From positions 1,607,501-1,671,500 of the forward strand of contig JANEZZ010000982.1 in assembly GCA_026122225.1 (NCBI GenBank): 64,000 nucleotides of DNA. The letters are read 5' to 3'. The DNA is from Heloderma charlesbogerti (lineage: Eukaryota; Chordata; Lepidosauria; Squamata; Helodermatidae). Below the pieces are notes generated by a model, which saw only the letters and a list, made by a program, of their open reading frames with translations, made no database searches and was not told the origin of the DNA. The position numbers were made by a program, and so were the translations under genes. This document shows, piece after piece, positions 2,443-63,455 of the stretch. Position 1 is the first letter of the stretch. Each line of letters begins with the position of its first letter.

Positions 2443-2953
2443 CTGCCATACATTAAAGCTGTGCAGGGCCCCAATCCATGCAACACTCTTGACTTAGATC
2501 AGGCCCTGCACCAGTTTCCTGCCATAAATCCCCCTTCCAGCTGCCATGTACCCAAGGGCCATCAAAAAGCTGGAGCCGGTGCTGCTAATAGCTGTATAGA
2601 ACATCTGTGTTCAGAGGCAGCATGCCAACGGATACCAGTTGCAGGAGCGGGATATTGTTTTCATGCTCTCTTATGGGCTCCCTGAAAAAAAATTGGCTGA
2701 CCACATTCAGGGCTGGCCATAGATCAAATGGAACCCTACGTGAGGCGTGACTTTGGTGCCCCGCCTCCATTGGTTTGCCTTCCAAATACCTTATTTGTCT
2801 GTGTTGCAATTGTAGCCCATTTCATGACTTTGTGCATGATTTACCCCATCATAGACAATACATTTGGACTCGGATCACTCAGATGCACACCCATTTGGTA
2901 GCATGGGCGCTGATTTGTTGTTGTTGTTTTTAAAAACAAAAGTATTCATGCTG

Positions 2954-2983
2954 TGTGGCAGATCAAGCAAATCTTTCATATTT
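2954..2983 (+). repeat. Remnant of foamy-type 5' LTR: first 30 bases only
   Basis: The 30 bases starting TGTGGCAGATCAA match 6288-6317 with a single G/A difference. Both copies start exactly at the TG that follows the polypurine tract at the 3' copy, and similarity stops after ATTT. The simplest reading is the outer tip of the 5' LTR, joined to env by a deletion that removed the rest of the LTR, gag, pol and the start of env. Confidence 0.7.
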
Positions 2984-5620
2984 CAGGCTTATATCTGAAA
3001 CCTCACCCCAAACCAATCATTGCAAGAAAGCAAACCACAGGCATTCCAGTAGTGCTTTATTTTGATTCTCAGCAAATGGCTAAATAGCACAATCTAGTAA
3101 AGCATGAATCTCACATGTGCTGGTCTTATACCATCGATGAAGAACTGAGAAGCTTGCAAGAGACACAAATTAATTTTGACCTCCCCTTACATGGGCTTGA
3201 ACGGCAGATGAACTACAGGGACACTCTGTACTATGGGGCCATGGGACACTGTTATTATGTTAACTCTGGAGGAAAAAGAGTCTGGCCTACAAATGAAATC
3301 ATAGCAGACCATTGCCCACGACTTTACTATCCAGCAGAAACGACGCCTAATATGTTCCCACAATATTATTTAAGCTCAGCAGGCCCATACAAGCCACACT
3401 GGGGAGCAGCAAAAGAAGAAGAATATTGCATTCCAGGAGGAAGAACTCCTGCAACAGGAGCAATATTTTGCACCTCACACCTTTACCAATCATCCTGGTG
3501 GGAGCCAAGCTTGCAAGCAGATGGAGGTTGGGAACAACTCCAAAAAACCCTTAAAAGATGTTTGAAAAACAGCAACACAGGTCAGCTGAAAGAAGATTGT
3601 CTTCCACCCTCCTGGCATGAGGGGGAAAGGAAGAATGTTTAGAGAACTGGACCCCTGGGACTTCTGTTCACGTTCACGTTTTCCAGCAAAGTGAACAGAG
3701 CATATTATGAAGAATCCTGTACTGAACAGTGGTGTCCAAATCAAGCACAAGAATTTCCCAAGTGGTGTCGAGAATGAGATATTATGTCCCAGAAGACCCA
3801 CCTGTGGAAGTGTATATACTGCAGCACACACCAATCATAGGCAGGAATAAAATGGAGTTCTAAAGCAGATGTTGGAAGTCTGGGAAAGCTACGTTTTAAA
3901 AAAAACACGTTACTGGACCTTGGTGTACAATTCAAAACAAAGTACTAGGCAAAATTATACTGTGTATTCATATCAGTCCATCCTAAAGGAAATCAACCCT
4001 GACTGCTCATTGGAAGGACAGATACTGAAGCTGAAGCTCAAATGTTTTGGCCACCTAATGCGAAGAGAAAACTCACTGGAAAAGACCCTGATGCTGGGAA
4101 AGACTGAAGGCAAAAGGAGAAGGGGACGGCAGAGGATGAAATGGCTAGATAGCATCACCGATGCAATGAATATGGACTTGAGCACAGTCCGGGAGAGAGC
4201 GGAGGACAGGAAGGCCTGGCGTGCTATGGTCCATGGGGTCACGAAGAGTCGGACACGACTGAACGACTGAACAACAAATTCATTGATGCGTTTGTGTGGC
4301 AGTAAATCGTTAACAAATCCTGTGTGTAATGCAATCAGTAATTTAAGAAAATGGATGTCAGTTTTATTACATGCAAAAGATTATCCCTGCAAACAGCAAG
4401 GACCAAATTGTTATATACATTATATCTCAGACCTGCCCCAAGCAGAAGCAGTTTGGATGACAAATTAGAAGTTTGCAGACAGTAGTCACTACAGAGAACG
4501 AAACATCTTGTGACACCTTTAATCAGAAGTGTAGCACAGAGAATTGGAAGGCTATTAAAAAGAGTGAGGGATTGACAGTGTCAGCCATCTGAACTCTAGC
4601 TAAAATCTCAGATATCAACAATAAAGAATTGGAAAGAGGGTTTTATGTTATAAGAGATCATCTAGTCTCTGCTGTTAGCGTCACCTTACATGACTTGCAG
4701 ACCTTGAATGATGTGTTTATAATTGAATCCATACATGCTCATCTTTTGAAAACTGTGCTCTTGTTAAATCCAGGGAAAGTTCCTTGGGAACTCATAGCTG
4801 TTAAGGAGTTGCAACAAAAATTGGGGGAGTGTGAGATGATTACAAGAGAATCATCCAGCATTCCTCACAAGCCACTGTTTTCCACATACATAAATATAAA
4901 GAGGGAGATTCTGCAAAATCATTACCAAGTATCGCTACAAGGTGGCAAGTGCATTTTTTATTGACCATGCACATCCCAGAACGCGTGTTTTATACTAATT
5001 GGGAAATTGTTAATGTAGGTACACTTGTTCATGCAGGCCAATATTGGGCATTATCCAAAATTGGCACTCCCTTTAATATAGTGACTTTGATATGTGGTGA
5101 GCAAAGATTTTTAGAAATTTTGGAGTGTAAAAATTATGTTTATGTATTTTGTAAAAAAATAATAATAAAAAGCATCCATGTGGGACAAATAAAACAGAGA
5201 GTAACTGTCCAGTTACTGTAGAGCCAATAGCAACTCCGTTTGTGTTTATTGAACCCCTATTGAATGGATCCTACATTAATGTGGCTAGTGAACTGTGGCC
5301 TCCCTTGAAGTCAGAGGTGCTGGTAACACAAGCAGTCTCAAATGTGACCAGAATTCCACTTTGCTTTCCACTGCTGGTTGGAATTTTGGCTCACCTCAAG
5401 AAGACTAATATTACTTTATTTTCCACACAAGACAGTATCAAACAGATTTTAATTAGTGCTCAAGCCCAGCTTTTGCATTTGGATATTCATCCCGAGGATT
5501 ATTCCATGTGGGTACATCAGTTAGCTCAAGCACTAGAATCCGTGCAGCCAGCCGCCTCAAATTTGGTACAGAATATTGCAACAGCCTCCACTCAGTTGAA
5601 TTGTGGAATTGCCATCTGAC
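2984..5620 (+). pseudogene. env: Endogenous foamy virus (spumavirus-like) env pseudogene
   Basis: Foamy Env is the surface glycoprotein for entry, made as leader, surface (SU) and transmembrane (TM) parts. Translating all three plus frames gives successive segments in foamy Env order: an SU start with YLKPHPKPII near 2990; INFDLPLHG, GHCYYV, IADHCP and IFCTSHLY (3115-3642); after a BovB insertion at 3972-4277, the TM start with KISDINNKELERGFYVIRDH and TLHDLQ (about 4600-4700); TNWEIVNVGTLVHAG (about 5000); PLLNGSYINVASE (5250); PLLVGILAHLKKTNI (5370); and LLHLDIHPEDYSMWVHQLAQ (5475). The gene is dead. It has stop codons near 3076 and 3640, a stop just upstream of the TM block, and several frame changes. 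No membrane anchor is seen after 5619. The leader and start are missing. Identification rests on my recognition of the family; I ran no search. Confidence 0.86.
3972..4277 (+). mobile_element. BovB (RTE-clade) LINE, 3' end fragment inside env
   Basis: The frame 3869-4270 contains the BovB C-terminal signature: CFGHLMRRENSLEKTLMLGK, then RRRGRQRMKWLDSITDAMN, then MVHGVTKSRTRLND. It is 5'-truncated, as is usual for BovB. The 6-bp repeat ATTCAT flanks it (3966-3971 and 4278-4283), supporting insertion into the foamy env. Its end, GAGTCGGACACGACTG, is shared with the Sauria SINE near 11050. BovB is abundant in squamates. Confidence 0.87.
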
Positions 5621-5640
5621 ATGTACCTTAATGCCCAGCC

Positions 5641-6444
5641 ACTCACAGCTTAGGTTCCAGACAATTCAAAACCCTTTGTGCATACAATCAAGCCTTTCCT
5701 GCTCATAACCCAGAGACTTTGAACGCCTCTCACCCACAGCCTGTTCCTTTGGCCAGGACATAGCAAGAGAACGCTTGGTACCTGAAAGTTCCACAAGATA
5801 CTACAGCACTCATATCTTAGCTGCACATCAGAGCAATGAACTTGGAACACAACATTAAATGGAGAAAGTTTGCAGTGGCAGAAGGACTTGTTTATCAGTG
5901 GTCCCATTTGGACTCTGAAATGGGAGCTTGCCTCGTTGTAGACACCCCAAATAGAGGAATGGAGTGTATAAGTTGTGATGGTTACAGACATAGTAATTGC
6001 TTTCTCATGTTTGGAAAATAATCATTTAATTCAGGAAGAAACCATCGGGTGGTTATTGACAAATTACCACCTACACATTTCCCTATAGCTTTTTGTGTTC
6101 ATGGATCTTCCTGTCGTCATATTTTTGCTGATTGGGAATCTCCAAATGGATTTGTTCAGCCTTTTCACCAACAGTATCTTGCCACTTACTTCCTCACTCA
6201 GATGCAGAGCGAGGGGGGTAGTTTAGAACACAGACCAAATTCTTGTGAGCATCCACATCACAGAATTCCCTTAGAGGGAGGAGGGGGTGTGGCAGATCAA
6301 ACAAATCTTTCATATTTGCATGATCTTACCCCTGCTGCTCAATTAGGAAATTCTGTAATCAAATGCCTCCAAGAGAATTCTGGAATTAAAAATGGGATTC
6401 CAATGCCAAATACCACCCAGTCTGGACTTCTCAACCAAGAGTAA
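5641..6444 (+). pseudogene. Foamy virus accessory-gene region (bel/tas/bet position), decayed
   Basis: Downstream of env, one reading frame runs from 5641 to 6444 broken only by stops at 5761, 5818 and 6019. The open parts are 5836-6018 and 6022-6444. They encode a protein with several Cys/His/Trp residues (for example ECISCDGYRHSNC and FCVHGSSCRHIFADWES). The frame crosses the LTR start at 6288 by about 150 bases, as accessory genes of foamy viruses do. I cannot say from sequence alone whether it matches the transactivator (tas) or bet. Position and overlap are the evidence; no function is claimed. Confidence 0.6.
6274..6287 (+). promoter_or_regulatory. Retroviral polypurine tract
   Basis: A 14-base purine run, GAGGGAGGAGGGGG, directly precedes the TG that begins the 3' LTR. 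This is the plus-strand primer site position of a retrovirus and fixes the LTR start at 6288. Confidence 0.75.
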
Positions 6445-7058
6445 TTAAAATGACTTATCTCTGAGGTTTGCCAGATGAGAGACAATTGTACCAGACCATT
6501 AGAAATAGATCATTAGTACCCTTTTACTGTTTAGAAAGGGATCCAGATAGGGAGGTGTCAATGTTAAATCTGGGGTTACGACTTTCACTTAGTAGAGTCT
6601 CGGATAGTTATTAGGTCAGATGGGCCATCAGATAAGTGACCAAGAAGCCTCACCGGAGACCGTAAATATGAGACCGTAAATATGTAAGAAAAACAAACTC
6701 ACAAGACAGGATGATGTCGAGAAAATATGTTTGTGTCAAAAACAAACTTGAAACATGTCAAAGAAAGCTAAAATGTTTAGATAAGTATGTTGGTATGCAT
6801 ATTAATCTTGATAAGAAACTTCAAAATTTGATAATCTTATTTAGACATATGAAGATTTAGAGTAGAAAGGTTATCTTTAGAATCCTTGGATAAGAAATAT
6901 AAACTGTAGTAAAAAATAGTTTGGACATATTTTATAGCATCCAAAAAGTATATAATGAAGACACAGAACATGCAACAGTGGAAGCTGTCCTTTAGGATCA
7001 GCTTTCCTTAACGTGTTGCCTGTAGAATCAACCTGGTAAGCTTGATATTGATTGGCTG
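6288..7058 (+). mobile_element. Foamy-type 3' LTR, U3 and start of R, truncated
   Basis: It starts TGTGGCAG after the polypurine tract. An AT-rich stretch follows, with a TATA box at 6949-6956 (TATATAAT) about 660 bases in. This length is plausible for the long U3 of foamy viruses. A short direct duplication GAGACCGTAAATATG occurs near 6660. Roughly 100 bases after the TATA box the sequence gives way to a CR1-like fragment, so the poly(A) signal, U5 and terminal CA are missing. No 3' target duplication can therefore be read. Confidence 0.68.
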
Positions 7059-7189
7059 GGAGGGTCCTATTGCCCTCATGTCCTGCTTGTGGGTTCCTGG
7101 TTGACAGCTGGTTGGCCAGTGTGTGAACAGAATGCTGGACAAGATGGACCCTTGGTCTGATCCTGCATGGGTCTTCTTATGTTCTTAAC
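7059..7189 (+). mobile_element. CR1-like LINE 3' end (family 2), short copy
   Basis: It matches the terminal part of a CR1-type family found at least eight times here, with TTGACAGCTGGTTGGCCA, GATGGACCCTTGGTCTGATC and the ending CTTATGTTCTTA. It abuts the truncated foamy LTR. Confidence 0.8.
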
Positions 7190-7310
7190 AGGCAGAGAGC
7201 CAGGGAGCAAGTCAGAGGTGGCATCTATTGGTGCCCCTCCTCTCCACCACCATTATCTGGTCCAAAGTGCGAGGCAGGTGCACAAGAAGGTTGCAATTGT
7301 TTTGGCCATA
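7190..7310 (+). repeat. Interspersed repeat, left part (continues at 7965)
   Basis: GCAGAGAGCCAGGGAGCAAG through AGGTTGCAAT aligns with 41310-41410. The continuation of that copy is found at 7965-8070, so the repeat was split by the 7311-7964 segment. Confidence 0.65.
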
Positions 7311-7964
7311 CTAATGTATTTATATCCCACTAATACAACTTAATGACTTTTAACAATTATAATCCTATATTGTAAGCGCTATATGAAGTAGAATATGGAA
7401 GTTTCTTTCTTAGGGGCTGAAAATAGGCTAGAGAAAACTTGATCTAAGAAGAGGAACTGATGATAAGGATAGAAAGCAATAAACCTAGACTTTCCACCTA
7501 ATAAAAGACAGAGAGAAATGAGTCAAGTTGAGTCATGTAACAGAAATAATCGGTAATGATAATTAACTCACAAGTGTACAATAAAAGCATCTGTTGATAT
7601 ATTGGAGTGTGCCCTGATTATACCGAAGCGTGACCAAGGGTTAACTTGCTCAGAAGATACCCTGAAGTCCATATGACATTTTATCTGAACTATGAACTTC
7701 TGATAACAACATTTGTCATCTTCTGTCAGCAGAAGATAAGAATATGTATGCATAGGTATGCTAGTTAAAGAACGGCAACTCATATCAATGTATATTAACT
7801 GAAGTTGAATTGTAACTTGAGTCTCATTCATTGAGTCTCATTGAGTCTCATTCATCTCATTCATCAATTGAGTCTCATTCATCTACCGTCTCCTAAAGAC
7901 CTGCCGATCTCAGTCAGCTTGAACACCTGGTTAGAGACCTAGAAGGTAATTTTGCCTTAACACA
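7311..7964 (+). mobile_element. Possible solo LTR splitting an older repeat
   Basis: This 654-bp AT-rich segment starts TGTTTTGG, ends TTAACACA (TG..CA) and contains AATAAA at about 7583. It interrupts a repeat that is continuous near 41.3-41.5 kb. It also holds a short minisatellite of GAGTCTCATTCATT-like units (about 7820-7880). I see no clean target duplication and no match to the LTRs at 499, 1742 or 6288, so its family is unknown. Confidence 0.45.
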
Positions 7965-8070
7965 GTGCCAGAGAGGAGGAGAAGTCCCAAGGGACTCATG
8001 CTAGTGGGCCACTGCTGGGGTTTGGACCCTCAGCAGGTGCCCAGCCATGCCTACCCTTGACGCCAGCCCT
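7965..8070 (+). repeat. Interspersed repeat, right part
   Basis: GAGGAGGAGAAG, GTGGGCC..CTGCTGGGG and CAGCAGGTGCCCA..CATGCCTACCCTTG align with 41415-41520, completing the copy begun at 7190. Confidence 0.65.
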
Positions 8071-8433: not shown

Positions 8434-8869
8434 GTCTGTCTGTCTTTTCCCACTTAATACTTTGCTAGCTGTATCAAGCAGCTTTCCTCTTTTAGATCCT
8501 GCAGTAACAATGTCAGTGGCAAGTCCAAGAGGGAGATTTCTGCAGCCTGCATCTGTCAGTTTCTCTCTTGTCTGATGCCGTCACTGACAGTTACATAACA
8601 GGGACCTCACTGGCAATACATTTCAAGGTAAATCTGCAGCTGCACAGCGGATTGCTTGAGCCGTTCAGAAACTGAGCCGTTCAGAACCGTTCAGACCAGA
8701 AACTGTTTTCAAGGACTGTATTTTGGGTTGTTCCCTCCAGCTCCCATCAAGAAAATTTTTGAAGATGGAGAAGCAAAGTATTTCCAAAGGCAAACCAGGC
8801 AAGATAAGATGGATTCCAGGAATTCATCTAATGTCTTTATGTTACAATAGAAACAGGATATAAGTGAAG
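8432..8869. other. No gene recognised; minor local repeats
   Basis: The only structure I see is a short near-tandem repetition of GAGCCGTTCAGAA at 8659-8700. Confidence 0.5.
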
Positions 8870-9061
8870 GGCTGTAGTCCAGAGATGGAACACACGTTTT
8901 TAATACAACATCCACCCCTCCCACTCCCCAACACCGATCCCTGGCATGTCCAGATTGTGCTGAAAATGTCTGAAACCCATGAGAGCATCTGCCCTTCTTT
9001 GTTGAAATACCGGGCCAGATTGGACCAATGGTCTGAATTGGTTTAAGCCAGCTTCCTATGA
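8870..9061 (+). mobile_element. tRNA-derived SINE, degenerate copy
   Basis: The 3' part (GGACCAATGGTCTGAATTGG and AGCAGCTTCCTATG-like end at about 9025-9060) matches the tRNA-Ala-like SINE family seen clearly at 10083 and 57822. The head is poorly preserved. Confidence 0.5.
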
Positions 9062-9169
9062 AAAAATTGGAGATTTGGAAAAGGATCAGATTCCACACTT
9101 TAAACATGCTGTGGAGCCTTCCCTGGTACCTTCCAGACCTGGTGCCTTCCAGAAATTTTGGACTACAGC

Positions 9170-9682
9170 CAGTGGAGGCTGGAGGCTCTGATTTCGGCAA
9201 GGTTTGAATCCACTCCGGCTTTCAGTCAGAACTAGCCAGAGTTCTAAAGGAGTTATCCAAGGTGCTGAAACCCACCCCTCAAATTTTATTTATTTATTTA
9301 TTTATTTATCGTATGGCACATTTACATCACATTACATTAAAAACATAGAGCATGATAAATATGAAATGCAAAATATAAAATATATACAGGAATATTACAA
9401 ACATATGTCTAGGTTACAGATATAGTTTTTTACTTCAGTTGTCACAGCCGGGAAATCGGCAAAGTCTCCACTGAAGGCTCGGTTTTGACACTCTGTCACT
9501 ATATGTTGGATAGTTTGTTTTTCAGCCCCACAATCACAATTTGATGATTTTGTTTTGCCCCATTTTTACCCCCAAAATAGATTTAGCACCTTAGATAGCT
9601 CCTTTAGAGTTCTGGCTGGTTCTGACTGAAAGCCAGAGTGGATTTAGCACCCCACCAAAATCGGAGCCACCAACCTCCACTG
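9170..9682. mobile_element. hAT-like fold-back element (family G), itself interrupted
   Basis: It begins CAGTGGAGGCTGG and ends CCAACCTCCACTG, with inverted arms of about 110 bases. It is flanked by ACTACAGC (9162-9169) and ACTACACC (9683-9690), an 8-bp duplication with one change, the length expected for hAT. Related copies lie at 26695-27015 and 44131-44300. Confidence 0.78.
9285..9575 (-). mobile_element. Retroposon fragment inside the 9170-9682 element
   Basis: Read on the minus strand it ends in ..CCATACGATAAATAAATAAA with further AAAT units, as a retroposed tail would. It separates the two inverted arms of the surrounding element. The family was not recognised. Confidence 0.5.
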
Positions 9683-31529: not shown

Positions 31530-31797
31530 AAAGAGCCATGCTGGAGGAGACCAAGGGTCCATCTAGTTCAGCGTTCTGTTCACACAGTGGGCAACCAGCT
31601 CTTCACAGGAAACCCACAAGCAGGACACAAGTGCAACAGCACCCTCCCACCCATGTTCCCCAGCAACTGGTGTACACAGGCTCACTGCCTCTGATACCGG
31701 AGGTAGCATAGAGCCATCAGGACTAGTAGCCATTGATAGCCTTCTCCTCCAGGAATTTTTGATAGCCTTCTCCTCCAACCTTCCCTTCCCCTCGAGA
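31530..31797 (-). mobile_element. CR1-like LINE (family 2), 3' end
   Basis: It contains the reverse of the family terminus: AGACCAAGGGTCCATCTAGT, CACCCTCCCACCCATGTTCC and GACTAGTAGCCATTGATAGC, with a small internal repetition near 31740. Confidence 0.85.
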
Positions 31798-31799
31798 CA

Positions 31800-31925
31800 C
31801 TATAGGATGGGTCAGAAAACACATTCCGCCCACCGGCCAAATTCCCTTTCAGAGAAGCCCTCGGAGGCCACATGCCAGTGGTGGGTGGGACCAAAGGCAA
31901 AAGGGGTGGGGCTAAAATAATAGCA
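31800..31925. repeat. hAT-like element (family F), left half
   Basis: GGCCAAATTCCCTTTCAGAG, AAGCCCTCGGAGGCCACATG and CCAGTGGTGGGTGGGACCAA match 17885-17960 and 34310-34385. It is cut off by the following CR1-like copy. Confidence 0.7.
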
Positions 31926-32560
31926 TAAGAACATAAGAAGAGCCCTGCTGGATGAGACCAAGGGTCCATCTAGTCCAGCATTCCATTTACACAGTGGCCA
32001 ACCAGCTGCCGACCAGGAACCCACAAGCAGAGCATGAGTACAACAGCACCCTCCCACCCATGTTCCCCAGAAACTGGTGAACATAGGCTCACTGCCTCTG
32101 GTACTGGAGGTAGCACATAGCCATCAGGACTAGTAACTATTGATAGCCTCCTCCTCCAGGAATTTGTCTAGCCTCCTTTTAAAGCCATCCAAATTGGTGT
32201 CCATCACTACATCCTCTGGTAGCGACTTCCATAGTTTAACTATGTGCTGTGTGAACAAGGACTTTTATCTATCCTGACTCTCCCACCAAACAGCTTCATA
32301 GGATGACCACATTGCATTCTAGTATTGTGAGAGAGGGAGAAAAACTTCTTTCTCTCCGCTTTCTCCACACCATGAATAATTTGAGCCAGCTCTGTGATGT
32401 CTCCTTTACTTGCCTTTTTTCTAAGCTAAGCAGTCTTAGATGCTGTAACCTTTCCTTATAGGGGAGTTGGCTGCTCTTTTTTGCCCTTTTTCCAGCAATA
32501 CAGTATCTTTTTTGAGGTGCGGTGACATGATTATGGATGTGTTCTCAGATACTTCCCAGA
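31926..32560 (-). mobile_element. CR1-like LINE (family 2), RT C-terminus and 3' end
   Basis: The longest copy of the family: terminus at 31926 (AGAACATAAGAAGAGCCCTG), then CCATCACTACATCCTCTGGT, TTCTAGTATTGTGAGAGAGG, and coding-derived sequence up to CAGTATCTTTTTTGAGGTGC at about 32520. Confidence 0.85.
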
Positions 32561-41050: not shown

Positions 41051-41641
41051 TAGGGCCTGCCCTAACATTAGGCAGAGTGAGCAGATGCTCCAGGGGGCGG
41101 ATGCTGGGGGCGGCAGTGAGTGTCAGCAAGGTGTTTGGAGGGCAGAGCTGTGCAGTGCTGGCTCCAGGTTTTTTGGGGGGGGCCTTGCGCAAGGCACCCT
41201 TAATGACCCACCTCCCTTACTGAGTCTTCCTTTTCACAACCATTGCTGCCTGCCAATGCTGCTACTCCTCTGTCCCCTCATCATTGCTCCCACCTGCTTG
41301 CTTGGCAAGCAGAGAGCCAGGGAGCAAGCAGGCATGGTCTTCCACTCCTCCAGTTTCTCACCACCACCGTTGACTGGGCCAGAGTGAGAGGCGAGTGAAC
41401 CATCAAGGTGCAATGGTGAAGAGGAGAAGCAGGTCCAGTGGGCTTTTGTCAGTGGGCCCCCTGCTGGGGAGTGGGCCCTCGGCAGGTGCCCAACTATGCC
41501 TACCCTTGGTGCTGGCTCTGGAGCTGCATGTGCAACACAACCTGTCCTAGCCTGCTGCCCTCAGATGCAGTGGAGGATGCTGTCATGTAGTAAGATACAA
41601 CTGCTCACCTGGCTGTCTTGGGCTGGCCCTGTTAGGCCCTA
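41051..41641. mobile_element. Candidate DNA element containing the 7190/7965 repeat
   Basis: The ends TAGGGCCTGCCCTAAC and GGCCCTGTTAGGCCCTA are inverted repeats with gaps, and GGCAGAGTGAGCAG mirrors CTGCTCACCTGG. The core is shared with 7190-7310/7965-8070. No flanking duplication was seen. Confidence 0.5.
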
Positions 41642-42804: not shown

Positions 42805-43172
42805 CTGAAGATTCAGGATGGAGAAAAGGAAAGACATCTTCATGTAGCGCACAGTTAAACTGTGGAATTCGCTACTACAAGATGTAGTGACGGCCACCAA
42901 TTTGGATGGCTTTAGAAGGGCATTGGACAAATTCCCGGAGGAAAAGGCTATCAAAGACTACTAGTTCTGATGGCGATGTGCTACCTCCAGTACCACAGGC
43001 ACTGTGCCTATGTACACCAGTTGCTGGGGAACATGGGCAGGAGGGTGCTGTTGCACTCATGTCCTCCTTGTGGGTTCCCAGTCGACAGCTGGTTGGCCAC
43101 TGTGTGAACAGAATGCAGGACTAGATGGACCCTTTGTCTGATCCAGCAGGGCTTTTCTTATAATCTTACTCT
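42805..43172 (+). mobile_element. CR1-like LINE (family 2), 3' end
   Basis: ACAGTTAAACTGTGGAATTC, GATGTAGTGACGGCCACCAA and TCGACAGCTGGTTGGCCACT, ending CTTTGTCTGATCCAGCAGG. Confidence 0.87.
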
Positions 43173-49945: not shown

Positions 49946-50464
49946 ATCAATAGGAATGTAGCACATGCTATTGACAGGCATTCCATTAAAAAATCTACAT
50001 AATATAATATTTAAATCACATTAAGTGTGCTTTAATTCCCCCCCCCAAAAAATATTTCCAGTCAAATACTTGTGCATTGCAACAAAAAATAACATGGGAA
50101 CTTCTTTAGCTTTTAAAAAAAAACTTAATATGAATAAAATACACATGCTAAATTAGATCAGTTTCTAAGGCATCAGAAAATGTTTTGATGCAAACAGAAA
50201 ATGTTCTGATGTAAATTACCCTATGCACATTAGCCTAATTTACATAGGAAAAAATGCTGGAAAATTTTCTAATAAACAATTTTCTGGAAAACCCACTGGG
50301 GTGGACTTGTGGCAGCCCTATTGTTCACTGGGTGAGGAGTGCAAAGAGAACATATGGTGCCAATCTTGAAACAGCTCCATTGGCTCCTCGTTGGTTTCTG
50401 GGACCAGTTTGAAGTGTGGGTGCTGACCTTAAAGCCTAAAAGGCCTGGGTCCAAAGATAACAGA
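49946..50464. other. No gene recognised
   Basis: AT-rich stretch with a C run at about 50039. TTTTCTGGAAAACCCACTGG near 50280 may be a DNA-element end. Confidence 0.4.
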
Positions 50465-50930
50465 AGAATAGAAGAAGAGCCCTGCTGGATCAGATCAAGG
50501 GTCCATCTAGTCCAGCATTCTGTTCACACAGTGGCCAAGCAGCTGTTGACCAAGAACCCACAAGTAGGACACGAGTGCAACAGCACCCTCCCACCCATGT
50601 TCCCCAGCAACTGGTATACATAGGCTCACTGTCTCTGGTACTGGAAGTAGCACATAGCCATCAGGACTAGTAGCCATTCATAGCCTTCTCCTCCAGGAAT
50701 TTGTCCAACCCCCTTTTAAAGCCATCCAAATTGGTGGCTATCACTACATCCTGTGGAAGTTGGATTCCATAGTTTAACTCTGCTCTGTGTGAAGAACTAC
50801 TTTCTTTTAACTGTCCTGAATCTCCCACCAATTACCTTCATGGGATGACCCCAGGTTCTAGTATTATGAGAGAGGGAGAAAAATGTCTCCCTATCCATAC
50901 CCTGCATTCTCCAAAGGACCGCCTCCTCCC
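50465..50930 (-). mobile_element. CR1-like LINE (family 2), RT C-terminus and 3' end
   Basis: Reverse of the family terminus from AGAAGAGCCCTGCTGGATCA through CTATCACTACATCCTGTGG to TTCTAGTATTATGAGAGAGG. Confidence 0.87.
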
Positions 50931-51884: not shown

Positions 51885-52130
51885 GCTTTCAAGGATGTGT
51901 CCTGGAGGAGAAAGCTATCAGTGGCTACTAGTCCTGATGGCTATGTGCTGCCTCCAGTATCAGAGGCAGTGAGCCTATGTACACCAGTTGCTGGGAACAT
52001 GGGTGGGAGGGTGCTGTTCCGCTCATGCCCTGCTTGTGGGTTCCTAGTCGACAGCTGGTTGGCCACTGTGGGAGCAGAATGCTGGGCTAGATGGACCCTT
52101 GGTCTGATCCAGCACAGCTCTTTTTAAGTT
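51885..52130 (+). mobile_element. CR1-like LINE (family 2), 3' end
   Basis: AGTGGCTACTAGTCCTGATG, ACACCAGTTGCTGGGAACAT and TGGACCCTTGGTCTGATCCA to TTAAGTTCTTA. Confidence 0.88.
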
Positions 52131-52889
52131 CTTACCCCTGTCATAGAGAAAAGGCAGTACATAAATATAAATAAATACTGGGGGTTGAACTTTCTGCCGC
52201 TGAGCCCTGATTCATCCCCTTTCAGGATGCGCTGGCCACAAAATAAGGATATCTGGCAGCCTGCAAAGAATAAGCACACTGAAACAGTATGCTGCAAATA
52301 CAGCATAGTTTAAGAACGGGTGCTGTAACCCATCCTTTCCATTCTGCCAAACAGTTCAGCCATTTCCACCCTAACCTGCCAGACTGTTCATCCATGAATT
52401 AATGCAGGGATGGGCCACAGACTGTAAAGCAAACTCTGTAGGCTGCTAGACGAAGAGTGCCATGCACCGCAGAGGTGGCGAACTGCGATGACTCCAGATT
52501 GTCACCGAGAATGCAAACTTCTGCTATGTTGCAGGCATGTTTCTGGCTCTTAACTTCCAAGGCTACCTGCCTGCACACAGATAGACAAGCTGCATGCATC
52601 CCTCTCATAGCTGTTTGCAGGAGCGAGAAGCTGAGAGATGTGATTAGGGGTCACATCTCTCAAAACCCAGTTATTGAGCTCTCCTGAGGCCATCTTTATG
52701 TGAGCGAAGAGAAAAAAATAATCGTAGTAGGAAGGGCTTGGAAGCATCTATCTCCCCTAAGGAAAACCTTCAAAGGAAGCCATAGGGAAGTGGCTTCTCC
52801 GATAGTTACTGATTTATCCAGAGTTCTTTAATGAAGATGGAAAAAATACTGGAAGATCAAAAGAAAGCTGCCTCTTTCTTGGATTTTGA
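52131..52889. other. No gene recognised
   Basis: A retroposon tail lies near 52150-52180 (AAATATAAATAAATA); ORFs at 52399-52747 have no motif. Confidence 0.45.
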
Positions 52890-53535: not shown

Positions 53536-56500
53536 CTAACCCACCCCAAATGCCTGCCTGAACAACCACGTTTTTAATGCACGACGGAAGCTCATTAAAG
53601 AGGGGGCATGGTGGAGTTCCCTAGGGAGGGAGTTCCACAGAGTGGGGGCCACCACAGAGAAGGCCCTCTCCCTCATCCCCACCAGTCTAGCTGTCCTGGC
53701 TGATGGGACAGAGAGAAGGCCATCCGAGGCTGATTTTGTTAAGTGGCCTGTCTGGTGTTGCTGGATGCGCTCCTTAAGATAGGCTGGGCCGGAACCGTAT
53801 AGGGTTTTAAAGGTCAAAACCAACACCTTGAATTTGGCCCGGAAAACAACTGGTAACCAATGCAACTCCTTCAGCACTGGAGTGATGTGATCTCGCCGGC
53901 GGCTGCCTTTAATCAGGCGAGCCGCCGCGTTCTGTACCAGTTGCAGCTTCCGAACCGTCTTCAAGGGTAACCCCACGTAGAGTAGTCTAAACGAGAGGAG
54001 ACCAGGGCATGTACTACCGATGGGAGCAGATGGTCGGGAAGGAAGGGGCGCAGCCGCCGTATCAGATGGAGTTGATACAGCGCTGTCCGGCTCACAGCTG
54101 ACACCTGAGCCTCCATGGACAGCTGGGAGTCCAAAATGACCCCCAGGCTGCGGACCTGGTCTTTCAAGGGTAGCCGTACCCCATTCAACACCAGGTCAAC
54201 ATCCCCCAGCCTCCTCTTGTCTCCCACCAAAAGTACCTCGGTCTTGTCAGGGTTCGGTTTCAGCTTATTCCTCCCCATCCAGCCACTCACCGTCTCCAGA
54301 CATTTGGACAGGGATTCTACGGCCAACCTTGGTGAAGATTTGAATGAGAGGTAGAGCTGCATGTCATCCGCATATTGATGACACTGCACCCCAAACCACC
54401 TGATGATAGCCCCCAGCGGCTTCACATAGATGTTAAATAGCATCGGGGAGAGGATGGAACCCTGTGGCACCCCACAAGTAAGTGGCCACGGGTCCGAAAC
54501 CTCCTCTCCCAGTGCTACCCTCTGGTACCTGCCGGAGAGGAAGGACCGGAACCACCACAATACAGTGTCTCCAATGCCCAACCCCTCCAGGCGGTCCAGG
54601 AGGATACCGTGGTCAACGGTATCAAAAGCCGCTGAGAGGTTGAGGAGAACAAGGAAGGAGCATTCACCCCTATCCAGAGCCCTCCTCATATCATCCACCA
54701 AGGCGACCAAGGTCGTTTCTGTCCCATGCCCAAGCCTGAAGCCCAACTGAAATGGGTCTAGATAATCAGTTTCTTCCAAGTGTGCCTTCAACTGCACCGC
54801 CACCACCCGCTCAATCACCTTGCCCCAAAATGGCAGATTTGAGACTGGGCGAAAGTTGTTCAGAACTTGAGGATCCAAGGAGGGCTTCTTTAAGAGCGTT
54901 CTTATCACTGCCTCCTTGAGGGCTGATGGCATCACTCCCTCCTCAAGGGAGGCATTCACCACCGCCCTGATCCCCTCACCCAGTCTCTCTCTGCAGCCCA
55001 TAATGAGCCAAGATGGGCAAGGATCAAGTAAGCAGGTGGTCGGCCGTACAGATGAAAGCACCTTGTCCACTTCATCAGGAGGAAGAAGCTGGAACCGATC
55101 CCACAAAACTGGTTTGCCACAGGCCGTCTCTTGCTCACTAACTGTATCCGCAGCGTGCAGAGTAACACACCTAATCTGATCAATTTTATCTGCAAAGTGC
55201 CTTGCCAAGGCCTCACAGGAGGCCTTAGAATGCTCCAGTGGTTCCGGAGCCACAGGACCGACCAGGGTCCGGACCACTTGGAACGGCCTCCTGGGACAGC
55301 ACTCTGCAGACGTGATGGAGGCAACATAATATTCCTTTTTTGCTGCCTTCACCGCCACGTGATAGGCTGAAGATACAGCTCTAGCCCGTGTCTGATTGTC
55401 TTTGGAGCGAGACTTCCGCCACCGGCGCTCTAGCCGTCTCACCTCCTGTTTCAGAGCTCGTAACCGCGGATTGAACCATGGTGCAGTCCGAGCCCTGTTC
55501 AGGGGGAGAGGGCATTTTGGAGCCACCTGATCTAATGCCCCAGTGATTGCGGCATTCCAGCCACCCACCAGGGTCTCAACCGAGTGGCCGTTGGCATGCC
55601 CCAGAGAATCCCCAAGCGCGTTCAGGAATCCATTCGGATCCATAAGACGCCTGGGGCGGACCATTTCAATGGGTCCTCCACCCCTGCGGAGGGGTTGTGG
55701 AACCGAGAAGTCCAACGTCACCAGATAGTAATCTGACCATGACAAGGGGGTAGTGGATATACCCCCGACTTCCAGATCACTCCCTGCTTCTCCAGAAACA
55801 AACACAAGGTCTAGTGCATGACCGGCTACATGGGTGGGCCCAGTTACAATATGATGCAGCTCCCAGGAGGCCATGGTCTCCATGAAGTCCCGAGGTGCTC
55901 CTGTGAGGATGGCCTCCGAATGTACGTTGAAGTCCCCCAACACCAATAAGTTAGGGGACTGTACACGCACATCAGAGACCACCTCAAGCACCTCAGCCAG
56001 GGAGTCAGTCGTGCAGCGGGGTGGACGGTACACAAGCAGAATCCCCAGACTGCCCTTCGGGCCCAACCTCCAGTACATGCACTCAGCAACCTTGGTCTCC
56101 CGGATAGGGGGTCTGGTGAAGACCAAGGACTCTCGATAGATAACAGCCACTCCCCCTCCCCGATCCCCAGCCCTCGGCTGCTGTGCATACGAAAATCCAG
56201 CTGGACACATGGCTGCAAGGGTTGGAGCAGCAGCCTCGGCCAGCCCAGTCTCCGTAATACATGCCAGGACTGCACCCTCATCCAGGATAATGTCATGAAT
56301 GAGGGAGGTTTTCTGGGTAACAGACCTGGCATTGCAGAGCAGCAAACGAAGGCCAGAAGATGGGGTCACGCCTCTCCCAGCCATCGTTTGGCTCTGGACA
56401 GGCCCGGAGCAGGGGACAGATACTACACATCTCTCCCTTGTTCCCCTTACCTGGCATGGCCTGCCCCTAGCGCTCCGCCAGCGCCTGCCGCCCAGCCTCG

Positions 56501-56630
56501 GTATGTTCTGGCCCCCAACACTCCCCCCACTGCCTCCATCAGGTGGACACATGCCCCCTCGCTCCCGCCTATCAGGCAGGCTACCCACCCCTAAAAACAC
56601 AACAAAATCCCCCCCAACAAAATAAAACAA
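53536..56630 (-). pseudogene. L2 ORF2: endonuclease and reverse transcriptase, one frameshift, altered active sites
   Basis: An 889-codon frame (53961-56630) overlaps an 146-codon frame (53536-53976) that holds the C-terminus. One frameshift near 53970 separates them. Endonuclease blocks: LLLCNARSVTQK, ACITETGL, LLVLGDFNVHSEA and LSWSDYYLVTLDF. The last normally reads SDH, so the catalytic His is Tyr here. RT blocks: FRPVSNLPFWGKVIERV, LVLLNLSAAFDTVDHG (motif A normally has Asp where Asn stands), CGVPQGSILSPMLFNIYV and the YADD box HQYADDMQLYLSF. Both changes hit catalytic residues, so the enzyme should be dead despite the long open frame. Plus-strand ORFs over this stretch are shadows. Confidence 0.9.
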
Positions 56631-56662
56631 ACAAACAAAACAATTAAAATCCCCTTAAAAAT

Positions 56663-63048: not shown

Positions 63049-63455
63049 CCATAAGAACATCAGAGCTGTGCTGGCTCAGACCAGACTTGTCCAGCTTTCT
63101 GTTCCTACAGTGGCCAACCAGCTGCCTGGGGAAAGCCCACGAGCACAACATGAACACAATAGAGACCTCCCACCCATGTTCCCAGCAACTGCCATTCAGA
63201 GGCATAGTGCCTCCAATAGTGGAGGTAATAGTGGAAGTAATATGTAGCCATCAGGACTAATAGTCATTGAGAGCCTCGTCCACCATGAATTTGTCTTATC
63301 CCCTTTTATAGGCATCCAAGTTGACAGCTATCACCACATCTTATAGTAGAGAATTCCACAGTTTGACTATGTGCTGTGCAAAGTACTCTCTTTTCTCTGT
63401 CCCAAACCTCCCACCTTTTAGCTTCATTGGATGGTCCCGGGTTCTAGTGTATAGG
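63049..63455 (-). mobile_element. CR1-like LINE (family 2), 3' end, diverged
   Basis: CATAAGAACATCAGAGCTGT, GAGACCTCCCACCCATGTTC, CATCCAAGTTGACAGCTATC and GGATGGTCCCGGGTTCTAGT. Confidence 0.82.

What the first reader, a model, noticed from the sequence alone, without database searches (positions are those of the whole stretch)
2954..7058. Endogenous foamy virus (spumavirus-like) remnant in a squamate genome
Seen: broken plus-strand frames give short peptide blocks in one consistent order. SU: INFDLPLHG, IADHCP, IFCTSHLY. TM: YVIRDH, TLHDLQ, WEIVNVG, LLNGSYI, PLLVGILAH, LDIHPEDYS. An accessory frame, a polypurine tract and a TG-starting LTR with a TATA box follow. Known: this Env layout and a downstream accessory frame overlapping the LTR are foamy virus traits; endogenous foamy viruses are rare, and to my knowledge reptile reports include tuatara and snakes. 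Inference: an old germline infection of a squamate lineage by a foamy virus.
Basis: partly seen in the sequence, partly recalled or inferred. Interest (0 to 1): 0.93.

Follow-up and report, generated by a model that had tools for sequence, protein, structure and literature searches.

The report
Broken foamy virus in lizard-type DNA
This stretch is the decayed end of an ancient foamy retrovirus that entered the germline of a lizard or snake, a rare but already known kind of viral fossil.

Summary
The finding holds. Five separate open frames between 2983 and 5616, on one strand and in profile order, match the Pfam foamy virus envelope family PF03408: four above the cut-off (best E 1e-29), one below it (2e-4). 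No other viral Env family was reported.

The locus is a deleted provirus. The first 30 LTR bases (2954-2983) recur at 6288-6317, after a purine tract. Env similarity starts where the left copy stops, so the rest of the 5' LTR, gag, pol and about 140 Env residues are missing. Env has a stop, frame changes and a LINE fragment. A frame at 5821-6441 (one stop) lies where foamy accessory genes lie and runs 51 codons into the LTR; no relative was found.

The host is very likely a squamate: the best 32 of 75 relatives of a LINE in the window are all squamate. Reptile foamy fossils are published for tuatara, two geckos and a sea snake, so this is a new member of a known kind. Species, age and tree position stay open; the host assembly could not be searched.

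The parts
2954..2983 (+). left LTR stub: first 30 bases of the LTR; left edge of the provirus
   Evidence: 2953-2983 and 6287-6317 are 30 of 31 identical, E 8.6e-8
2983..3084 (+). env, first remnant, from about profile residue 143 on; ends at an in-frame stop
   Evidence: frame 2914-3087, residues 24-56, matches PF03408 143-175, E 2.2e-4, 19.6 bits, below the cut-off of 27
3088..3639 (+). env, SU piece
   Evidence: PF03408 181-362, E 5.2e-24; PDB chains 8ozh E 2.4e-11, 8rm1 E 8.4e-10, 8rm0 E 4.9e-9, 8aez E 2.4e-4
3643..4592 (+). env, presumed remainder of SU, too decayed to recognise, with a LINE fragment inside
   Evidence: 8 frames scanned, none matches PF03408; 3 of these searched in PDB, no hit to the foamy Env chains. 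Length after taking off about 300 bases of LINE (about 670) fits the 226 missing profile residues (about 678 bases)
3976..4277 (+). 5'-truncated BovB/RTE-type LINE fragment inserted in env
   Evidence: peptide of frame 3851-4270; the name BovB is recalled, from no call, and the limits are approximate
4593..4961 (+). env, TM piece 1
   Evidence: PF03408 588-668, E 1.7e-17; 8rm1_D E 1.6e-13, 28 of 80 residues identical counted on the printed alignment
4835..5218 (+). env, TM piece 2 (another frame)
   Evidence: PF03408 669-771, E 2.2e-17; 8rm1_D E 4.9e-10
5155..5616 (+). env, TM piece 3 (another frame)
   Evidence: PF03408 two stretches, best 835-933, E 1.1e-29; 8ozh E 5.7e-20, 33 of 80 identical in the best stretch
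5821..6441 (+). putative accessory frame, one stop inside, last 51 codons within the LTR
   Evidence: a plus-strand frame of 140 codons was reached in 10 of 2000 shuffles, 206 codons with one stop in 2 of 2000; but 15 and 6 of 78 other tiles of the window reach these too; codon score best of six frames over the whole, reached by 3.5% of 1000 random stretches; no relative found
6273..6287 (+). polypurine tract, 15 purines
   Evidence: read directly
6288..7052 (+). right (3') LTR, right end lost
   Evidence: start shown by the repeat with 2954-2983; TATATA at 6949, no AATAAA between 5501 and 7477; cut at 7053 by a repeat

Best explanation
An endogenous foamy virus (Spumaretrovirinae-related provirus) in a squamate genome. 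A foamy virus integrated in a germ cell (inferred). Later, or during reverse transcription, one deletion joined base 30 of the left LTR to about residue 143 of Env and removed gag and pol (the junction is shown; that it was one event, and its timing, are not). The remaining env, accessory region and right LTR then decayed: a stop and frame changes in env, a LINE inserted in env, and another repeat at the right LTR (shown). This copy makes no virus and no whole Env, so its present role is most likely none beyond being a fossil (inferred).
For: Five collinear PF03408 pieces, four above cut-off; Env chains (recalled to be foamy virus) first in PDB for the four main pieces; LTR start duplicated at both ends with the purine tract before the right copy; Env similarity starts at residue 24 of frame 2914-3087, that is base 2983, the base where the LTR copy ends; env broken and interrupted by a LINE; squamate-only top relatives of the LINE at 53964-56654.
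Against: No gag or pol next to env; the middle of SU (3643-4592) has no foamy match in 8 frames; target-site duplication and LTR right end not found; accessory frame without a relative, and 15 of 78 other tiles of the window (rich in LINE frames) also hold a frame of 140 codons; no relative DNA confirmed in IMG/VR for three Env pieces and the accessory frame; protein searches with two Env pieces found nothing at E 0.01, though their length limit excludes full-length Env.
Confidence: 0.95

Rival explanations
1. A host-kept (co-opted) foamy env gene like the env-only elements of geckos, here in a lineage that uses it.
For: The published gecko elements are env only, with no gag or pol (PMC6669660, Results read); this locus too lacks gag and pol next to env.
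Against: The recognised Env pieces lie in three frames, with a stop between the first two and a LINE inside; the gecko frames are whole, and in Gekko japonicus the env lies in an EMC1 intron with no other foamy part reported, while this one has LTR pieces and a purine tract.
Confidence: 0.02
2. A LINE-made retrocopy of a spliced foamy env mRNA instead of a deleted provirus.
For: Env without gag and pol is what a spliced env message would carry.
Against: The left edge is the first 30 bases of U3, which are not at the start of a viral RNA; Env starts at residue about 143, not at its start; the accessory region and U3 follow.
Confidence: 0.03
3. The host is tuatara, and this is one of the known ERV-Spuma-Spu copies, not a squamate element.
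For: Tuatara carries 165 such elements (PMC6669660, Results read).
Against: In the published tuatara consensus the gap between env (to nt 8958) and the LTR (from nt 9110) is 151 nt; here it is about 550 nt (from about 5731, estimated by profile length, to 6288). The LINE's named top relatives are squamate, although tuatara proteins may not be in that database.
Confidence: 0.04

Closest known systems
ERV-Spuma.1-Hha, spine-bellied sea snake (PMC6955096)
   Same: squamate host, foamy env followed by an accessory frame without known relatives
   Different: that element keeps the 3' part of pol, a full-length env with only few stops and a coding-competent accessory frame with an internal promoter TATAAAA; here pol is gone, env is badly broken and no TATA[AT]A lies between 5501 and 6897
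[quoted passage not shown]
   Same: squamate host, foamy env without gag and pol
   Different: gecko env frames are whole, orthologous, under purifying selection, and consist solely of env; this env is broken and has LTR pieces
ERV-Spuma-Spu, tuatara (PMC6669660)
   Same: decayed foamy provirus in a reptile with transposons inside
   Different: multi-copy with gag and pol; 151 nt between env and LTR against about 550 here; the authors find no accessory gene between env and LTR
ERV-Spuma.N-Cbo, oriental stork (PMC6955096)
   Same: env, then an accessory frame that runs into the LTR (consensus nt 8601-9551, LTR from 9468), no similarity to known proteins
   Different: bird host, LTR of 576 nt, gag and pol known
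Env chains 8ozh, 8rm0, 8rm1, 8aez in PDB (listed as Envelope glycoprotein or gp130; that they are simian foamy virus Env is recalled)
   Same: Env pieces align along SU and TM
   Different: 28 of 80 and 33 of 80 residues identical in the two TM stretches counted; here broken

Membership tests
Endogenous foamy virus (Spumaretrovirinae-related) | Env of the foamy family (PF03408) | tested here: met
   5 of 18 frames match in profile order, 4 above cut-off
Endogenous foamy virus (Spumaretrovirinae-related) | Pol most similar to foamy Pol, groups with foamy viruses in a tree | not testable with these tools
Endogenous foamy virus (Spumaretrovirinae-related) | LTRs starting TG, at both ends, the right one after a polypurine tract | tested here: met
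   30-base left stub equals the right LTR start; purine tract 6273-6287. Right LTR end not found; this feature is shared by retroviruses in general
Endogenous foamy virus (Spumaretrovirinae-related) | LTR length as in foamy viruses (576 to about 1700 nt in the papers read) | tested here: inconclusive
   at most 765 bases remain, cut at 7053
Endogenous foamy virus (Spumaretrovirinae-related) | accessory gene between env and LTR, overlapping the LTR | tested here: inconclusive
   frame 5821-6441 with one stop; 10 and 2 of 2000 shuffles, but 15 and 6 of 78 other tiles; codon score; no Pfam family reported for it at E up to 10
Endogenous foamy virus (Spumaretrovirinae-related) | internal promoter near the env end | tested here: not met
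   no TATA[AT]A between 5501 and 6897. The authors could not identify it in the tuatara consensus, and say it was found in the sea snake element unlike the stork ones, so it does not define the endogenous group
Endogenous foamy virus (Spumaretrovirinae-related) | lysine tRNA primer binding site | not testable with these tools
   the stretch after the left LTR is deleted
Endogenous element (not an infection or contaminant) | broken frames, transposon inserts, host-type DNA on both sides | tested here: met
Gecko-type co-opted foamy env | whole env frame | tested here: not met
   three frames, a stop and a LINE insert

The most novel reading that the evidence does not exclude
The element belongs to a lizard foamy virus lineage distinct from the gecko and sea snake lineages, with its own accessory gene, and would help decide whether mammalian and bird foamy viruses came from a toxicoferan reptile, as proposed in PMC6955096.
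Probability: 0.35. Interest if true: 0.6.

Novelty: new member of a known kind. Interest (0 to 1): 0.42.

Why it matters
Only a handful of reptile foamy fossils are in the papers read here: tuatara, two orthologous gecko env genes and one sea snake element. [quoted passage not shown] This locus adds a squamate element with an LTR start at both ends and an accessory frame, and shows that short broken Env pieces suffice to recognise such a fossil.

Tried and rejected
Tried without result: DNA relatives in IMG/VR for three Env pieces and the accessory frame (none confirmed); protein relatives of two Env pieces among 5.8 billion proteins (29 candidates: 24 candidates, none at E 0.01; only proteins of 0.55-1.75 times the piece length are candidates, so full-length Env could not appear); NCBIfam for five frames (only a weak RbfA match, E 0.055); recognising the middle of SU in 8 frames and 3 PDB searches; a solved-structure relative of the accessory frame (best E 0.62, a zinc-finger protein, not significant); the LTR right end in 7188-8000 (no similarity of 6280-7060 better than E 0.26; 7301-7971 is instead an insert in another repeat). 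The idea that the provirus had landed inside a pre-existing copy of the repeat at 7053 was dropped, because 2800-2953 has no match to that repeat at E 1e-3. The host assembly was never searched: seven identical requests were unanswered. No tree was built, because no foamy Env sequences were obtained.
Full report
What was checked. All nine named peptides are present, on the plus strand and in the stated order, from 3169 to 5505.

Env. I scanned 18 open frames of the locus against Pfam (9, 9). Five match Foamy_virus_ENV (PF03408): 2914-3087 (profile 143-175, E 2.2e-4, 19.6 bits, below the cut-off of 27), 3088-3642 (181-362, E 5.2e-24), 4593-4964 (588-668, E 1.7e-17), 4835-5221 (669-771, E 2.2e-17) and 5155-5619 (best stretch 835-933, E 1.1e-29). 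The order in the DNA is the order in the profile, and the best stretches do not overlap. No other viral Env family was reported at E up to 10. The other matches at that threshold were weak and unrelated: HHH_9 at 0.27, TetR_C_38 at 0.021, Sirohm_synth_C at 0.045, Connexin43 at 0.054 and ORF239-like at 0.23. Against solved structures the four main pieces each hit the same few chains first (8ozh, 8rm0, 8rm1 and, for SU, 8aez). The output names these chains Envelope glycoprotein or Envelope glycoprotein gp130; that they are foamy virus Env is recalled. The next hits, where there are any, are unrelated at E 0.086 or more. On the printed alignments I counted 28 of 80 identical residues and 33 of 80. 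So chance is excluded and no other retroviral Env group competes.

What is not recognisable. Between 3643 and 4592 eight frames were scanned and none matches PF03408; three of them were compared with PDB and did not hit the foamy chains (the weak hits there, E 0.19 or more, are unrelated). The length fits all the same: about 970 bases less a LINE fragment of about 300 leaves about 670, and the missing profile part (362 to 588) would need about 678. I infer a decayed SU middle. The LINE fragment at about 3976-4277 reads as BovB/RTE type; this name is recalled and comes from no call.

How the gene is broken. The recognised pieces lie in three frames, with one in-frame stop between the first two pieces and one transposon inside. 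This copy cannot make a whole Env.

LTR and deletion. 2953-2983 and 6287-6317 agree in 30 of 31 bases (E 8.6e-8). The right copy follows a 15-base purine tract (6273-6287) and begins TGTGGCAG at 6288, as the start of a retroviral LTR does; the left copy is the left edge of the element at 2954. The Pfam match of frame 2914-3087 begins at its residue 24, base 2983, just where the left LTR copy ends. The simplest reading is one deletion that joined LTR base 30 to about Env residue 143. Whether it happened in the genome or in reverse transcription cannot be told. A retrocopy of an env message is unlikely, since the left edge is the start of U3.

Right end. A repeat starts at 7053 and ends at 7187; it has six further matches in the window, five at 83-87% identity over 123-135 bases and a sixth, partial one at 76%. 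TATAAA is at 6898 and TATATA at 6949, and no AATAAA lies between 5501 and 7477, so R and U5 are probably lost. From 7189 to 7300 and again from 7972 to 8059 the DNA matches one other copy at 41306-41508, which lacks the 671 bases in between. That insert is a separate event. No target-site duplication was established.

Accessory frame. 5821-6018 and 6022-6441 are in one frame with a single stop between them, and the last 51 codons lie in the LTR. In the 1433 bases from the end of the last Env frame to 7052, a plus-strand frame of 140 codons came in 10 of 2000 dinucleotide shuffles, and 206 codons with one stop in 2 of 2000. Against this, 15 of 78 tiles of the rest of the window (both strands, many with LINE frames) also hold a frame of 140 codons, and 6 of 78 hold 206 with one stop. 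Codon usage learnt from the Env pieces scores this frame highest of six over its whole length (0.202 against at most 0.159), a value reached by 3.5% of 1000 random stretches of the window. By parts the lead is thin: 0.206 against 0.205 in 5821-6018, 0.150 against 0.140 in 6022-6288, and in the LTR part (6289-6441) two minus frames score higher (0.323 and 0.293 against 0.288). No relative was found (Pfam, NCBIfam, IMG/VR, PDB). In print, the accessory frames of the stork and sea snake elements also have no known relatives (PMC6955096, section 3.1 read). I hold it as a probable accessory gene, about 0.65.

Host. The LINE frame 53964-56654 (897 aa, with reverse transcriptase and endonuclease domains) has 75 relatives at E up to 1e-10 among the 7996 candidates that were scored, which were only those sharing most words. 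The best 32 are all named squamates (Podarcis, Anolis, Varanus, Rhineura, Hemicordylus), the best one 60% identical. The database is uneven, so this shows a squamate-type genome, not a species. A review states that squamate repeats are dominated by CR1, BovB and L2 LINEs (PMC9913427, one passage). Ten frames of the window outside the foamy locus, chosen from the frames of 95 codons or more listed, were scanned in Pfam at E 0.01, this LINE among them; three match LINE-type reverse transcriptase or endonuclease domains, seven match nothing. The rest of that list was not scanned, so foamy gag or pol elsewhere in the window is not formally excluded. The window's own genome could not be searched: seven identical requests did not complete.

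What is known. Read: PMC6669660 (outline with abstract, and the Results section), which reports 165 tuatara elements and two orthologous, intact, env-only gecko elements. Read: PMC6955096 (outline with abstract, sections 2.1, 3.1 and 4), which reports stork and sea snake elements and says that additional avian and reptilian foamy viruses are required. Passages only: PMC10581153, PMC12386078, PMC6050309, PMC9913427, PMC9723728, PMC6001957 (in 2018 it found no foamy-related element in reptiles and birds), PMC11089739. Eight searches of the library on foamy or spuma viruses (one search listed 20 of 33 papers) showed no further squamate foamy element in the titles and abstract starts listed. A ninth search was on LINEs. 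Most subscription papers are not held, so this is no proof that the element is unpublished. A 2021 J Virol paper on foamy viruses from the Palaeozoic to the Cenozoic was not held; I recall it as mostly about amphibians.

Compared with the known ones. The spacing between env and LTR, about 550 bases, is unlike the tuatara consensus (151 nt), and an accessory frame running into the LTR resembles the stork consensus. It is not the gecko gene, which is whole and consists of env alone. It is not the sea snake contig, which has pol next to env.

Verdict. A genuine deleted endogenous foamy provirus in a squamate-type genome (0.95 for foamy; about 0.93 for squamate). It is a new member of a known kind. 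Age and tree position are unknown.

Noticed in passing
521-992 and 1762-2256: Two related LTR-like stretches (80% identical over 790-992 against 2055-2256) with TATA-like signals, the first lying inside a LINE; probably solo LTRs of another retroviral family.
   Followed up: partly
7301-7971: A 671-base insert within a repeat whose other copy (41306-41508) lacks it; three AATAAA signals; perhaps a solo LTR of yet another family.
   Followed up: partly
53964-56654: A LINE with an unbroken 897-codon frame (endonuclease and reverse transcriptase), 60% identical to a Podarcis protein: possibly recently active.
   Followed up: partly
7053-7187; 31531-32357; 42809-43169; 50416-50896; 51900-52135; 63050-63448: An interspersed repeat at seven places in the window (two of them within 31531-32357), the one at 7053 cut short at its left end where it meets the foamy LTR.
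   Followed up: partly
6022-6441: The accessory frame holds a Cys/His-containing stretch that faintly resembles a zinc finger of CPSF4 (E 0.62, not significant).
   Followed up: no
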